The notes beneath the pieces are model-generated. The model ran no database searches and was not told the origin of the DNA. It worked only from the letters and a program-made list of their open reading frames with translations. The translations under genes were made by a program, and so were the position numbers. A DNA stretch of 64,000 nucleotides from Armatimonas rosea (GTDB taxonomy: Bacteria > Armatimonadota > Armatimonadia > Armatimonadales > Armatimonadaceae): NCBI RefSeq assembly GCF_014202505.1, contig NZ_JACHGW010000007.1, forward strand, positions 1 through 64,000, in the 5' to 3' direction. Below, piece by piece: positions 4,439 to 10,750 of this stretch (within the stretch, counting starts at the first letter, position 1; each line of letters starts with the position of its first letter).

Positions 4439-4456
4439 ATTGTACCGAGGTACAAT
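4439..4456. promoter_or_regulatory. Palindromic divergent promoter with two leaderless -10 boxes
   Basis: ATTGTACCGAGGTACAAT is a perfect inverted repeat with a 2-nt centre. The right half gives TACAAT 7 nt before ATG 4464 (+), the left half gives TACAAT 7 nt before ATG 4431 (-). The two RNA polymerase sites therefore overlap. Confidence 0.65.
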
Positions 4457-4463
4457 CCGAAAT

Positions 4464-5591
4464 ATGAACAGTGTTGTGATTGTTGCGGCGGGACGCTCCG
4501 CTATCGCCAAGTCCCCCAAAGGCAGCTTTCGAGACCTACGCCCCGACGATCTCGCCGCCGCCGTGCTCCGGGGCGTCTTGGAGCGCGTCCCTCAGTTTTC
4601 GCTTGCCCTCATCGACGATGTGATCTTGGGCTGTGCGACCCCGGAGCTGGAGCAGGGGATGGACGTTGCCCGCGTCGCCGCGCTCCGTGCCGGGCTCCCG
4701 GAGAGTGTCGCCGGTCTGACCCTCAATCGGTTCTGCGCGTCGGGGCTGGAGGCGATTGCCACGGCAGCAGCCAAGCTCGCCACGGGCCAGGCTAGCTTTA
4801 TCCTCGCAGGCGGTGTCGAGAGCATGACCCGTGCGCCGTTTATGAGCGAGTCGCTGCGCCCCAACGAGTCCCTCCCTGCCGAGACCTGGCTGGGAATGGG
4901 GGAGGCGGTGGAGCGTGTGGCGGTAGAGGAGGGGATCACCCGCGCCCAGTGCGACTCCCTCGCTCTCCAGAGCCAGCAGCGCGCCGCCGCCGCCCAGGCC
5001 GCCGGAAAGTTCGACACCGAGATTATCCCGATCACCCTTCCCGATGGCCCCCTCGTTAACCGTGACGAAGGCATCCGCGCCGAGACCACGCTGGAAGGAC
5101 TCGCGGGCCTAAAAACACCCTTTGGCGGAGTCATCACCGCCGGCAATGCCAGCCAGCGCAGCGATGGTGCCGCCGCCGTCTTGCTCACCACCGAGGCGCT
5201 CGCCCGTGAGCATGGCCTAACACCTCTCGCTCGCTTTGTCGGCTACGCCACCGCCGCCGTGGACCCGGTGCACTTCGGAATCGCCCCCGCCGCCGCGATC
5301 CCCAAGCTCCTAGAGCGCACAGGCATTACCCTTGACCAGATCGACCTGATTGAGTTCAACGAGGCCTTCGCCGCCCAAGCGCTCGCCAGCCAGCGGCATT
5401 TTCCCCTCGACTGGAACAAGGTCAATGTGAACGGGGGCGCAATTGCGCTGGGCCACCCCCTCGGGGCCACGGGTGCCCGCCAGACGGTCACGCTCCTCCA
5501 CGAAGCCCCCCGACGTGGCGCTCGCTACGGCATGGTGACGATGTGCGCCGCGCTGGGAATGGGGGCCGCTGGGCTGTTTGAGTTTCTCTGA
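4464..5591 (+). CDS. Thiolase (acetyl-CoA acyltransferase)
   Basis: Thiolytic cleavage or condensation of acyl-CoA (beta-oxidation or acetoacetyl-CoA formation). The nucleophilic Cys91 lies in NRFCASG; GGVESM, NEAFAAQ, the His-containing GGAIALGHPLGA and the C-terminal MCAALGMGAAG with the second cysteine are all present. At 375 residues it is slightly short for the family (390-400). ATG 4464 is preferred over 4440 because a TACAAT box sits 7 nt before it. No fadB, HMG-CoA synthase or PHA gene adjoins, so the pathway cannot be set from context. Confidence 0.92.
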   Translation: MNSVVIVAAGRSAIAKSPKGSFRDLRPDDLAAAVLRGVLERVPQFSLALIDDVILGCATPELEQGMDVARVAALRAGLPESVAGLTLNRFCASGLEAIATAAAKLATGQASFILAGGVESMTRAPFMSESLRPNESLPAETWLGMGEAVERVAVEEGITRAQCDSLALQSQQRAAAAQAAGKFDTEIIPITLPDGPLVNRDEGIRAETTLEGLAGLKTPFGGVITAGNASQRSDGAAAVLLTTEALAREHGLTPLARFVGYATAAVDPVHFGIAPAAAIPKLLERTGITLDQIDLIEFNEAFAAQALASQRHFPLDWNKVNVNGGAIALGHPLGATGARQTVTLLHEAPRRGARYGMVTMCAALGMGAAGLFEFL

Positions 5592-5684: not shown

Positions 5685-6332
5685 CTAGCCCTGGGGCATC
5701 GTCCCCAGGAGCGGGTGGCCTGCGGGCAGTCGGGCCACCAGCACCTTGCGGTACTGTGTCAGACGCGCAAGCAATGCTTTGCGCCGCGCCGCCCGTGCTC
5801 CTCGGAGCGTGCGAGCATGCTCCCGGTTCTGTGTCGCGCTCTGGTAGTACCCCCGAAGGGTCGCGGTGTCCGTGGCAAACTGCGCCTGGGAGTAGCCCAC
5901 TGGCAGGGTGAGCGGGACAAACTCACTCAGGCTCGTGTCGCTGTTGATGGTGGCCCAGAGCTGGCTGCTGTCTTCGAGTGCCTTGAGGAAGATACCTTCC
6001 CCCGCGTTGGTGGCAGGTAGGAGGGGGAGCATCCCGACATAGCGCGTCCCCGGCAACATGCCCTGTACCGCCGCGCGTAGCTGAGAAATCCGGGTACGGA
6101 GTGCTTTTTTGAGCGCGTCTCGCTCGGTTGCAGCGCCTTGGGCCGGGTTCTCGGCGGCCTGTATCTGCTGCTCATCGGCGATAAAGGCGGCGCGCTCCTC
6201 CGCAAGGCTCGCCACGGTGAACCCCGGCGCTAAGATCAGCTCCGAAGCCCCTAAAGCCGCATTGACATCGCTCCAGTGTGTCTCCCAGCGATTCAAGAGT
6301 GAGATGATGTTCTCAAGATCAGAAACTGCCAT
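5685..6332 (-). CDS. Hypothetical protein
   Basis: A 215-residue protein I do not recognise. It is mostly predicted helical and rich in Ala, Arg and Gln, without signal peptide, membrane helix or cysteine motif. An in-frame ATG at 6359 would add nine residues. I prefer ATG 6332 because GGGAG stands 9 nt ahead of it. It lies just downstream of the Septu-like pair on the same strand, but 96 nt away, so membership of the defence unit is doubtful. Confidence 0.6.
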   Translation of the reverse strand: MAVSDLENIISLLNRWETHWSDVNAALGASELILAPGFTVASLAEERAAFIADEQQIQAAENPAQGAATERDALKKALRTRISQLRAAVQGMLPGTRYVGMLPLLPATNAGEGIFLKALEDSSQLWATINSDTSLSEFVPLTLPVGYSQAQFATDTATLRGYYQSATQNREHARTLRGARAARRKALLARLTQYRKVLVARLPAGHPLLGTMPQG

Positions 6333-6428
6333 GTTAAAATCTCCCGTAGATGATGTCATTATTTTAACATAGCCAGTCTGTAGATTTCAAGAGGTGTCTG
6401 TGAAAAATTGAATTCTGTCTGTCAATAA

Positions 6429-7250
6429 TCAAGCCGTGTCTGTTGTTCTTAGGAAGTTAATATCCCGTGCTTCTGGTGCTTGCTCGAATAGTGCCCGTAG
6501 TTCGTCGTATTTATCCCACTGTCGCTGCATCTCTCGCCATACCGTTGGGTGGCTCCGACGGCGAAGTGCGCGAAGGGTTGCTTTTATCTCTCCACCTGTG
6601 TCTCGCCGGATAATATACTTCTCCAGTAGCGCAAGATAGCTCTCGTAAGCTTCCTCACGGGCTTGGAGGAGATAGTCACGGTCATTGAGGTGGAGTAGCT
6701 CCCAGGTGTAGCGTGCACGCTGCTCTTCTCGTGTTCCGGTGGGGTGGGGTGCGCCAAACTGCCACGTTCGCAGATCGAGAATCAGATACTCCAGCGGGTC
6801 TTCCTGTCGTGGGTCGATCAGCGCGGGGTCACCGAAGACAGGCGGCTCAAGGGGATCGTCTTTTTTCCGCGCCACACTCTGGAGTACCCCTTGGTGGAAG
6901 ACAGCGAAGCCATTGCTCTTGGGTCCATTGCAGGGGCCGCAGGCATAGAGGTAGTTTTCCCAGAGAAACACGCGCTCGGGGTAGAGGTCCTTCGGCCAGA
7001 TATGCTCGACCTCATCGGCGGGGGCATCTTCGCAGTAGCAACAGCGCCGCGCCCCGCTACACATCGCCGTGAGCGCGGCCTTTACCGCACTAAAGACTGC
7101 ATTGCTTTTCTTGTTGTAGGCCGAGAAGCGCTCTTTTGCCTTGGCAACCTGCTCCGGGTATTCCCCTGAATCGGTCACTTCTTGTTGGTAGCGGTTGAGC
7201 GCATCCAGGGTCGCTCTATCCGGCGCGATTCCCTCGTCCAGCCGGATCAT
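6429..7250 (-). CDS. HNH endonuclease, Septu PtuB-like
   Basis: A 273-residue protein with a zinc-supported HNH fold: C70-x-x-C73 (CCYCE), His83 in DEVEHIWPK and C104-x-x-C107-N in ACGPCNGPKSN. This spacing, with the DPRQEDPLEYL segment after it, resembles the PtuB nuclease of Septu anti-phage systems. The ATG overlaps the stop of the upstream AAA ATPase (ATGA), as in ptuA-ptuB. Expected role: the ATPase senses infection and the nuclease cuts DNA. The gene is intact, unlike its partner. Confidence 0.8.
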   Translation of the reverse strand: MIRLDEGIAPDRATLDALNRYQQEVTDSGEYPEQVAKAKERFSAYNKKSNAVFSAVKAALTAMCSGARRCCYCEDAPADEVEHIWPKDLYPERVFLWENYLYACGPCNGPKSNGFAVFHQGVLQSVARKKDDPLEPPVFGDPALIDPRQEDPLEYLILDLRTWQFGAPHPTGTREEQRARYTWELLHLNDRDYLLQAREEAYESYLALLEKYIIRRDTGGEIKATLRALRRRSHPTVWREMQRQWDKYDELRALFEQAPEARDINFLRTTDTA

Positions 7251-8545
7251 CGGGCACGTCTCCGAGACAGTCCGACACTCGCGCTACTGGGGAAGAGTCC
7301 CCGGAGAAACTCCTGACGCTCGATCTCCTCATCTGTCAGATCGTCGTCCAGCTCCTTGATATTCAGCGCCGCCAGCTCCTCAAGGAGCCCCTTCGCCTCC
7401 TCGGAGCGCTCGACGCCAACCCCAAACACCCCGGTTCCGTACGCCTCAGACACGCTTCCGTACTTCAGCCGCAGGAGATTGTTCCCCGTCACAAACTCCC
7501 CAACCTCATCCGTCCCTGGAGTCGGGAGCTTGAAGACCGTATCCGCTGCCTGACAAATAATCGGCGAGTGGGTAGTCACGATGAATTGGATATTAGGAAA
7601 ATGGGTCGTAAACCACTCCCCAATCCGATGTTGCCAAGTCGGGTGCAGGTGCGCGTCCACTTCATCAATCTGTACCACCCCCGGCGCAATAATCTTCGTC
7701 GCATCCTCCGGGTCGAAGACCTTGTCCACCCCAAAGCAATCCACCAACTGCCGGATCAGCTCAAACGTCAAAGACAACACCGACCGATACCCATCTGACA
7801 TCTCCTCAACATTGATTTGATTGTTATTAGCGTCTTCTATAACCACCTCTTTTGAGGTCACATCAATTATTTTTGTGTCATGAGCTAGAAATTCGGTTTG
7901 ATTGACAAATTCAAGGACTTTTTCTAAAGTTTTGCCAGAGTCTTTATGGTTTTCAAATTGCTCAAAGCGGAGTTTCTGGAGCCAAGGCAAAGGCTTGGTT
8001 AGTCCTATTAGTTCTGAATACGCCTGTGCATGACGATATACCTGAGGATAATCTTCAATAACGGTACTTTGAAAATTTTGTGATCCGGAAAACCCCCTCT
8101 CAGGGCCAAAAGATATTGAAAACCATCCTTGAATTCTTTTGGTGTCGTGGTTTTCCTTCTATATAGGTATTGTTTGAGAGTTATGTGCGTCATGGAAAAA
8201 TAGGAATACCTCTGATCCGTCTAAAATTGATGTCTGTGATTCGAAAAAGTATCCTTCGTCCGTAAAGTTCTCATAGAAATCATTTTGGGGGTCAGCTTCA
8301 ACGCGGACAACTAACTTTGATTGTGCAGACTTTTTGTTGCGCAGTTGAAATCCTGACATGGGGAGGCGGCTTCGCTCCGAGGGACTTAACAAAGAATATG
8401 CGATGCTTCTAATAAAACTTGTCTTTCCACTGCCATTATCGCCGAGAATAACATGCCATCCTGCGCCGTTTTGTTCTTCGGGCAACTCCCAAATTAGGTG
8501 CTTGATGGCGCGGATATTCTCGATCTCAATGCGGCGAATGTGCAT
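7247..8545 (-). pseudogene. AAA family ATPase, Septu PtuA-like, interrupted by an in-frame TAG
   Basis: One continuous frame of 433 codons broken only by TAG at 8161-8159 (codon 129). Codons 1-128 hold Walker A GDNGSGKT (residues 35-42). Directly after the TAG the frame resumes with sensible family sequence (GWFSISFGPERGFSG), then an MSDGYRS signature near 248, Walker B VVQIDEVDAHLHP near 291 and the H-loop TTHSP near 324. No frameshift is involved. It is either a nonsense-inactivated gene, a sequencing error, or a readthrough codon. The region around 7800-8545 is clearly AT-richer than its neighbours, which suggests transfer. It sits with the HNH gene as a ptuA-ptuB pair. Confidence 0.8.
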
Positions 8546-8551
8546 GAGGGA

Positions 8552-8557
8552 ATTATA
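8552..8557 (-). promoter_or_regulatory. Consensus -10 (TATAAT) of the Septu-like operon
   Basis: On the minus strand GGTATAAT is followed by 6 nt and ATG 8545, which implies a leaderless mRNA. No Shine-Dalgarno sequence is present. Confidence 0.65.
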
Positions 8558-8594
8558 CCGGGTACGGCGTTTCGTGTGGGCGTCGCCATGTCCG

Positions 8595-8781
8595 GGACGG
8601 TGAACGTCCGGCTATAGGGCGGGCAAGCCGCCGCGCTTCGCAGGTTCGTTTGACGGGAGGCCCCGACGCCACGAACACCCACCCCGTACCGACGAGGAAC
8701 GAGGAGGCGGCGCGAACGCGCCCCATAGCGGGACGATCTCCGTCCACGCGAATGCGCCCCATAGCCGGACGTTTACCATCC
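8595..8781. repeat. Three copies of a GC-rich palindromic repeat unit
   Basis: Two direct copies at 8712-8745 and 8748-8781 share the core GCGCCCCATAGC and start 36 nt apart. A third, inverted copy lies at 8595-8622 (core GTCCGGCTATAGGGCG). The inverted arrangement allows long stem-loops. Only three copies with mismatches, so this is not a CRISPR. Confidence 0.6.
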
Positions 8782-8855
8782 TGGCTCATGCCCGGCTCGT
8801 GCGCCGTGCGCCCGTCCCGCGCGAATTCCATAACCTTCCCATGGGCACAATGCGA

Positions 8856-8905: not shown

Positions 8906-10750
8906 ATGGCCGACGCCAACGAACTTCAGCTCTTCAACGACCTTGCCCGCCAGCTCCGTGCGGACTCTATCCGCTGTACCACCGCCGCCGGGAGCGGTCA
9001 CCCGACCTCCGGGATGAGTGCCGCCGACCTGATGGCCGTGCTCCAAGCCAAGTACCAGCGCTACGACTACAACAACCCCGAGCACCCCAACAACGACCAC
9101 CTGATCTTCTCCAAGGGCCACGCCTGCCCGGTGCTCTACGCCATGTACCGCGCTGCCGAGGCGATCACCGATGAGGACCTGCTCTCCCTGCGCAAGTTTG
9201 GCTCGATCTACGAAGGCCACCCGACCCCGATCATTCCCCATATCGACGCCGCCACCGGCTCGCTGGGGCAGGGGCTGGCGATCGCGGTGGGGGTTGCCAT
9301 TGCCGGCAAGCACATCGAGAAGCTCCCCTACAAGGTCTGGTGTCTGCTGGGCGACTCCGAGATGGCCGAGGGCTCCAACTACGAGGCGCTCATGGTCGCC
9401 AGCGAGCAGGGGCTCGACAACCTGATCGCCATTGTCGATGTCAACAAGCTCGGCCAGCGCGGGGAGACCGCTCTGGGGCATGACATGGCAACCTACGCCG
9501 CGCGCGTCTCCGCGTTTGGCTGGAAGGTGCTGATTGTCGATGGCCACAATGTCGCTGAGATCGACGAAGCGTATGCCGAGGCAGTGAAGCACACCGGCTC
9601 GCCCGTCTGTATCCTGGCCAAGACCGAGAAGGGCGGCGGCGTCAGCTGGCTAGCGGGTGCGCCCGGCTGGCACGGCAAGGCGCTCAAGCCTGACGAGGCC
9701 GAGAAGGCGCTTGCGGAGCTGGCACAGGCTGGTCCCATCGCGGGCTACACCGTCAAGCCGCAGCTCCCTGAGGACCTGACGCCCGCCCCGTTCACCGGCG
9801 ATGCGCCTCTTGTGCTCCCGAGCTATGAAGTGGGCACGAAAGTGGCCGTCCGCAAGGCCTATGGCGACACGCTGGCCGCGCTGGGCAAGTCCCGTGGCAA
9901 TCTGTTCGCGGTCGATGCCGAGGTCGGCAACTCCACCTACACCGAGAGCCTGGGGAAGGTCGCCCCGGAGCGCCTGTTCCAGGTCTATATCGCCGAGCAG
10001 GTGATGGTCGGGGTGGCGCAGGGGCTCGATGTCCAGAACAAGAACACCTTCGCCGCGACCTTTGCCGCGTTCTTCTGCCGCGCCTACGACCAGATCCGCA
10101 TGGGCGCGATCTCGGGTGCCAAGCTCCGCCTGGTCGGAACCCACGCCGGTGTCTCGATTGGCGAGGACGGCGCGAGCCAGATGGCGCTGGAGGACCTGGC
10201 GATGATGCGCTCGATCCACGGCTCGACCGTGCTCTATCCGTCGGATGCGGTCAGCTGCGCCCACCTGATGAGCCTCATGGCCGACTACGATGGGATCGCC
10301 TATCTCCGCGCCACCCGCGAGGCCACCGCCGTGATCTACCCCGCCACCGAGACCTTCGAGATCGGCGGGAGCAAGACCCTGCGCGAGGGCACCACGGCTA
10401 CCGTGATCGCTGCGGGAATCACCCTGATCGAAGCGCTCCAGGCCGCCGACACGCTCGCCTCAGAGGGGATCAACATCCGTGTGATCGACCTCTACTCGAT
10501 CAAGCCCGTGGATGAGGCCGCGATCCTCAAGGCCGCCACCGAGACCGAGCACCTGATCGTGGTCGAGGACCACTGGCCGGAGGGCGGCTTGGGCGATGTG
10601 GTTGCCGCAACCCTCACCAAGAACTGTGTGGCGCCTAAGAAGTTCTCGCACCTGGCGATCCCGCAGATGCCGCGCTCCGGAAAGCCCGACGAGCTCTTGG
10701 CCGCCTACGGAATCGACTCCCACGCGATCATCAAGGTCGTCAAGGGCTAG
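8906..10750 (+). CDS. tkt: Transketolase
   Basis: Transfers two-carbon ketol units between sugar phosphates (non-oxidative pentose phosphate pathway) using thiamine diphosphate. At 614 residues it is a full single-chain enzyme of the shorter, animal/archaeal-like type (bacterial TktA is about 660). Visible: SGHPTSGMS (residues 29-37), the ThDP/metal segment GDSEMAEGSNYEA near residue 152, and the catalytic-glutamate pyrimidine domain DAEVGNSTY near 339, followed by the transketolase C-terminal domain. It is monocistronic with its own terminator. Confidence 0.95.
   Translation: MADANELQLFNDLARQLRADSIRCTTAAGSGHPTSGMSAADLMAVLQAKYQRYDYNNPEHPNNDHLIFSKGHACPVLYAMYRAAEAITDEDLLSLRKFGSIYEGHPTPIIPHIDAATGSLGQGLAIAVGVAIAGKHIEKLPYKVWCLLGDSEMAEGSNYEALMVASEQGLDNLIAIVDVNKLGQRGETALGHDMATYAARVSAFGWKVLIVDGHNVAEIDEAYAEAVKHTGSPVCILAKTEKGGGVSWLAGAPGWHGKALKPDEAEKALAELAQAGPIAGYTVKPQLPEDLTPAPFTGDAPLVLPSYEVGTKVAVRKAYGDTLAALGKSRGNLFAVDAEVGNSTYTESLGKVAPERLFQVYIAEQVMVGVAQGLDVQNKNTFAATFAAFFCRAYDQIRMGAISGAKLRLVGTHAGVSIGEDGASQMALEDLAMMRSIHGSTVLYPSDAVSCAHLMSLMADYDGIAYLRATREATAVIYPATETFEIGGSKTLREGTTATVIAAGITLIEALQAADTLASEGINIRVIDLYSIKPVDEAAILKAATETEHLIVVEDHWPEGGLGDVVAATLTKNCVAPKKFSHLAIPQMPRSGKPDELLAAYGIDSHAIIKVVKG

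What the first reader, a model, noticed from the sequence alone, without database searches (positions are those of the whole stretch)
6429..8545. Septu-like ATPase/HNH pair with a single in-frame amber codon in the ATPase
The ATPase reads correctly in one frame before and after TAG at codon 129, and the HNH gene is intact and coupled. The module is AT-richer than its surroundings. Either the defence system has just been silenced by one mutation, or TAG is read through, or there is a base error.
Basis: partly seen in the sequence, partly recalled or inferred. Interest (0 to 1): 0.65.

Follow-up and report, generated by a model that had tools for sequence, protein, structure and literature searches.

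The report
Broken phage-defence gene pair (Septu)
A bacterial anti-virus gene pair of the known Septu kind has lost its first gene to a premature stop signal that this organism really uses as a stop, so the system is most likely switched off here; this is an ordinary event.

Summary
On the minus strand, 8545-7247 is a ptuA gene (432 codons) open in one frame except for TAG at 8161-8159 (codon 129). It overlaps an intact ptuB (7250-6429) by 4 nt. Both match the PADLOC Septu families over nearly their whole length (E 4e-129 and 2e-100). All 29 full-length homologues aligned with it lack the stop, and none shows two separate proteins.

Read-through is very unlikely. TAG is the commonest stop codon in sampled DNA of this genome (42 of 85 long ORFs). 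Release factor 1 is present. No suppressor-type (CTA) tRNA was found among 74 tRNA-like genes. No in-frame ATG lies between the stop and about codon 249.

The stop does not look like the only change. Residues 61-235 are unusually divergent: the longest terminal branch of 30 sequences for residues 146-235, and an otherwise invariant arginine is lost. The C-terminal half and PtuB look normal. "Just silenced by one mutation" is therefore only partly supported.

The genome carries other, open ptuA-like genes, and its same-genus relative lacks this module. Best reading: an inactivated, horizontally acquired Septu system. A base error at the stop cannot be excluded without reads. Interest is low.

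The parts
7247..8545 (-). ptuA reading frame (432 codons, Walker A to C-terminus) interrupted once by TAG
   Evidence: PADLOC PtuA1 PDLC00269, residues 1-426 against profile 1-437 of 446, E 4e-129; single-frame match to a homologue profile
8159..8161 (-). in-frame TAG, codon 129; lies in the least conserved stretch of the protein and in a low-confidence loop (residues 121-135) of the read-through model
8162..8545 (-). N-terminal fragment that would be made: 128 residues with the Walker A region, without Walker B, signature region or C-terminal part
7841..8365 (-). ptuA residues 61-235: anomalously diverged, AT-rich stretch around the stop
6429..7250 (-). ptuB, HNH nuclease of 273 residues, intact; 48 of 50 near-invariant positions kept, including the CxxC pairs, H83 and N99
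   Evidence: PADLOC PtuB1 PDLC00340 E 2.4e-100
7247..7250 (-). ATGA overlap of ptuA stop and ptuB start (translational coupling expected)
8552..8557 (-). TATAAT ending 6 bases before the ptuA ATG: possible promoter of a leaderless message
   Evidence: 2 such arrangements in the window, 0.16 expected; consensus match only
8711..8782 (.). two copies of a dispersed intergenic repeat upstream of ptuA

Best explanation
This is a Septu anti-phage operon (ptuA ATPase then ptuB HNH nuclease) that its host acquired horizontally and that has been inactivated by a true nonsense codon in ptuA. Translation stops after 128 residues. No complete ATP-binding head can form, because Walker A lies before the stop and the signature region, Walker B and C-terminal region lie after it. 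PtuB may still be made but has no ATPase partner, so the system should be silent. The stop and the one-frame anatomy are shown. Loss of function is inferred from published work showing that the ATPase and HNH motifs are both required. The stop may not be the first damage: residues 61-235 have diverged abnormally, which suggests relaxed constraint or a local replacement before or around the stop (inferred).
For: Full-length single-frame homology with one TAG. No stop in any of 29 full-length homologues. TAG is a normal, commonest terminator, 42 of 85 long ORFs. Release factor 1 scores 488 bits against a cut-off of 423. No CTA-anticodon tRNA among 74 tRNA-like genes (with 23-25 read by eye). The C-terminal AAA_21 region lies wholly after the stop. 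Published work: PtuA or PtuB of retron-Eco7 alone gives no growth arrest (PMC11555353); Walker A/B or HNH mutants abolish Septu immunity (PMC13096335). Six of 31 near-invariant sites are lost before residue 236 and 0 of 54 after it, p 0.0017. Terminal branch for residues 146-235 is 1.62 against a median of 0.25, rank 1 of 30. Horizontal acquisition: no ptuA in the same-genus genome G001, whose matching flank genes lie at two different places, and AT-rich composition.
Against: Only one lesion is present and PtuB is well preserved, which is also what a base error would give. The C-terminal half of PtuA shows no decay. The local divergence could be adaptive, or come from recombination with a divergent ptuA, rather than from decay. 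No second isolate of the species was available.
Confidence: 0.75

Rival explanations
1. The TAG is a base-calling or assembly error; the strain has an intact Septu system.
For: Single lesion, no frameshift, intact ptuB, apparently normal C-terminal half.
Against: The surrounding 61-235 stretch is also anomalous, including loss of an otherwise invariant arginine, which one base error does not explain. The genome is 98.2% complete in 19 contigs, but no read data were available either way.
Confidence: 0.18
2. TAG is read through or recoded, so that a 432-residue PtuA is made, perhaps conditionally.
For: The frame is open after the stop and the read-through product is predicted to fold as PtuA (pLDDT 82; best PDB matches are PtuA chains). 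The stop falls in a flexible loop where many residues would be tolerated.
Against: Release factor 1 present; TAG the commonest stop codon; no suppressor-type tRNA found; none of 29 full-length homologues has a stop.
Confidence: 0.03
3. The ATPase is made as two pieces: residues 1-128 and a restarted C-terminal piece.
For: A TTG-started ORF of 247 codons (7990-7247) exists in the same frame.
Against: No in-frame ATG between the stop and about codon 249. The TTG at 7990 has no evident ribosome-binding site in the sequence and would lose residues 130-185. No homologue is split here.
Confidence: 0.03
4. ptuA is a chimera: an AT-rich, divergent middle part (about residues 61-235) came by recombination from another ptuA lineage, and the stop arose later or came with it. 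(This adds to the nonsense reading and does not compete with it.)
For: GC3 is 39 and 32% in residues 61-235 against 63-72% after residue 236. Divergence is confined to that stretch, and residues 1-60 are normal.
Against: No donor lineage was found among phylum genomes, plasmids, phages or viral contigs. Some same-phylum homologues show a milder gradient of the same sign.
Confidence: 0.25

Closest known systems
Septu (PtuA-PtuB), PADLOC PtuA1 PDLC00269 and PtuB1 PDLC00340 lineage
   Same: Both proteins match over nearly their whole length; gene order ptuA-ptuB with ATGA overlap; many homologous pairs in Cyanobacteria, Chloroflexota, Myxococcota, Armatimonadota, Planctomycetes and Bacteroidetes genomes and MAGs.
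   Different: ptuA carries an in-frame TAG and a diverged middle stretch.
E. coli Septu (PDB 8EE4/8EEA; Septu EcB88, PMC13096335)
   Same: Same fold class by Foldseek (8eea chains, E about 1e-15) and same two-gene logic.
   Different: About 16-17% identity in the structural alignment; target of the window's lineage is untested.
Retron type I-A effectors PtuAB (retron-Eco7/Ec78, Ec83)
   Same: PtuA fold (9e90, E 1.4e-18) and distant PtuB similarity.
   Different: No reverse transcriptase near; the genome's only RVT_1 match is on another contig.
A second ptuAB pair in the same genome, G000:C1:434278-436428
   Same: Same subfamily, 43% identity over the C-terminal part.
   Different: ptuA is open throughout.

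Membership tests
Septu (type I PtuAB) | PtuA ABC-type ATPase with Walker A, DEVDAHLHP Walker B region and PtuA profile match | tested here: met
   As one protein only when the TAG is read through: PDLC00269 E 4e-129, residues 1-426. In the actual sequence it is present as two stretches either side of the stop.
Septu (type I PtuAB) | A translatable full-length PtuA | tested here: not met
   TAG at codon 129, standard stop in this genome. The locus is filed as a disrupted copy, not as a working system.
Septu (type I PtuAB) | Adjacent PtuB with HNH motif | tested here: met
   PDLC00340 E 2.4e-100; 48 of 50 near-invariant sites kept.
Septu (type I PtuAB) | Protects against phage | not testable with these tools
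   Needs plaque assays.
Retron type I-A | Reverse transcriptase and msr/msd beside ptuAB | tested here: not met
   Only RVT_1 match in the genome is at G000:C4:509654-510265, on another contig.
Programmed TAG recoding (suppressor tRNA or code change) | CTA-anticodon tRNA and avoidance of TAG as terminator | tested here: not met
   No CTA tRNA in 74 tRNA-like genes; TAG ends 42 of 85 long ORFs; RF1 present. Two tRNA genes with inserts and a few with odd anticodons were read by eye only.

The most novel reading that the evidence does not exclude
A Septu ATPase whose middle part has been remodelled and whose expression is gated by low-level TAG read-through, giving a normally silent system with intact PtuB.
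Probability: 0.02. Interest if true: 0.6.

Novelty: new member of a known kind. Interest (0 to 1): 0.12.

Why it matters
It is one more example of a defence system lost by point mutation while other systems of the same kind remain in the genome. It fits the picture of rapid gain and loss of costly immune genes, and it warns that profile-based defence annotation can count a dead locus as active. It does not change understanding of Septu.

Tried and rejected
Frameshift instead of nonsense: rejected, one frame fits end to end. Split proteins: no start codon or homologue support. Code change or suppressor: rejected. Retron membership: no reverse transcriptase nearby. Close relatives of the ATPase by back-translated patterns: none in genome contigs or viral contigs, so no strain-level comparison was possible. 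The G002 copy looked truncated near the composition break, but it simply runs off its contig end. An apparent internal stop in L042 is probably the alignment running past the gene's real end; I did not check it and left L042 out of later counts. A first tree attempt failed to produce a file and was redone with FastTree.

Full report
What is there. On the minus strand, bases 8545 to 7247 form a 432-codon frame that starts MHIRRIEIENIRAIKHLIWELP and ends just inside the start of the next gene. It is open except for TAG at 8161-8159, codon 129. The next gene, 7250-6429, codes for 273 residues and overlaps the first by ATGA. PADLOC identifies the pair as PtuA (PDLC00269, E 4e-129, nearly full length when TAG is read as a residue) and PtuB (PDLC00340, E 2.4e-100). 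Pfam sees the two ends of an AAA_21/AAA_15 ATPase on either side of the stop.

Is the single-stop picture real? Twenty-nine full-length homologues, mostly found through their ptuB, have no stop in ptuA. A profile built from them without the window matches one window frame end to end and no other frame significantly. In residues 61-235 composition predicts about 10 stops, and there is one; the other two same-strand frames have 9 and 14. This is a real gene with one nonsense codon, not a chance ORF or a frameshift.

Is TAG a stop in this organism? Yes, on three lines. TAG ends 42 of 85 long ORFs in about 119 kb of this genome. Release factor 1 is present over its curated cut-off. Among 74 tRNA-like genes found by Rfam, ARAGORN shows no CTA anticodon. 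Two tRNA genes that ARAGORN does not report and a few odd ones were read by eye, and none showed a CTA anticodon. Read-through is thus very unlikely. Re-initiation is also poorly supported, because the first in-frame ATG after the stop is at about codon 249.

Is the stop the only damage? Probably not. Among positions that are at least 90% conserved, the window departs at 6 of 31 before residue 236 and at 0 of 54 after it (Fisher p 0.0017). One of these is an arginine (R151, in the GPFRRF motif) that is invariant in the other 29 of that alignment. For residues 146-235 the window has the longest terminal branch of 30 sequences (1.62, median 0.25), while residues 1-60 and 236-425 are ordinary. 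The same stretch is AT-rich (GC3 39 and 32%, against 63-72% downstream). This fits relaxed constraint, or local replacement by divergent sequence, but a single sequence cannot separate these. The segment boundaries were chosen after looking at the alignment, so the p value is indicative only. PtuB keeps 48 of 50 near-invariant positions.

What the product would be. The read-through protein is predicted with mean pLDDT 82, and codon 129 falls in a low-confidence loop (121-135). The model's best PDB matches are PtuA chains of retron Ec83, Ec78/Eco7 and E. coli Septu. The real product ends before the signature and Walker B regions. Published work reports that PtuA or PtuB of retron-Eco7 expressed singly does not arrest growth (PMC11555353), and that Walker A/B or HNH mutations abolish Septu immunity (PMC13096335). 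Those are distant relatives, so loss of function here is inference, though strong.

Setting. The locus lies between a thiolase (4440-5591) and a transketolase (8906-10750). The same-genus genome G001 has no ptuA match and has these two flank genes on different contigs, next to unrelated genes, so the module sits at a point where gene order differs between the two genomes. No reverse transcriptase is near; the genome's only one is on another contig, so this is not a retron. The genome has a second ptuAB pair of the same subfamily with an open ptuA at G000:C1:434278-436428 and more distant ptuA-like genes. Disrupted Septu genes occur elsewhere too: ptuB of L045 is broken by a frameshift, and a few ptuA-like matches in relatives contain stops.

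Verdict. A Septu operon disabled by a nonsense codon is the best reading (0.75). A base error is the main rival (0.18) and needs reads. The finding is correct and well observed but ordinary.

Noticed in passing
L098 (G000:C4:212680-212801, minus) and L092 (G000:C4:624771-624900, minus): Two tRNA genes that reach Rfam's threshold but are not reported by ARAGORN carry inserts of about 50-60 nt in the anticodon loop. The inserts look like small tRNAs themselves (an acceptor-like stem and a T-arm-like hairpin), as if one tRNA were nested in another; whole-gene folds are more stable than shuffles (z -2.6 and -4.1).
   Followed up: partly
L085:6123-9056 minus (G000:C1:1186125-1189054): A cluster of divergent, low-scoring tRNA-like genes that duplicate standard anticodons (Ser, Met, Glu, Cys, Ala, Trp), one with an unclear anticodon.
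   Followed up: no
window 8592-8784: Short dispersed intergenic repeat with core CCCCATAGCSGGACG: 15 exact copies in the genome, none of the reversed control, two of them just upstream of ptuA.
   Followed up: partly
window 8543-8557: TATAAT ends six bases before the ptuA ATG, so the message may be leaderless.
   Followed up: no
window 5685-6359: Protein of 224 residues without a Pfam match beside ptuB; the genome has three more copies at 29-37% identity, one about 8 kb from the second, open ptuAB pair.
   Followed up: no
L045:4168-4179: ptuB of a Planctomycetales MAG is broken by a frameshift between residues 67 and 72 of the match while its ptuA is open: another disrupted Septu pair.
   Followed up: partly
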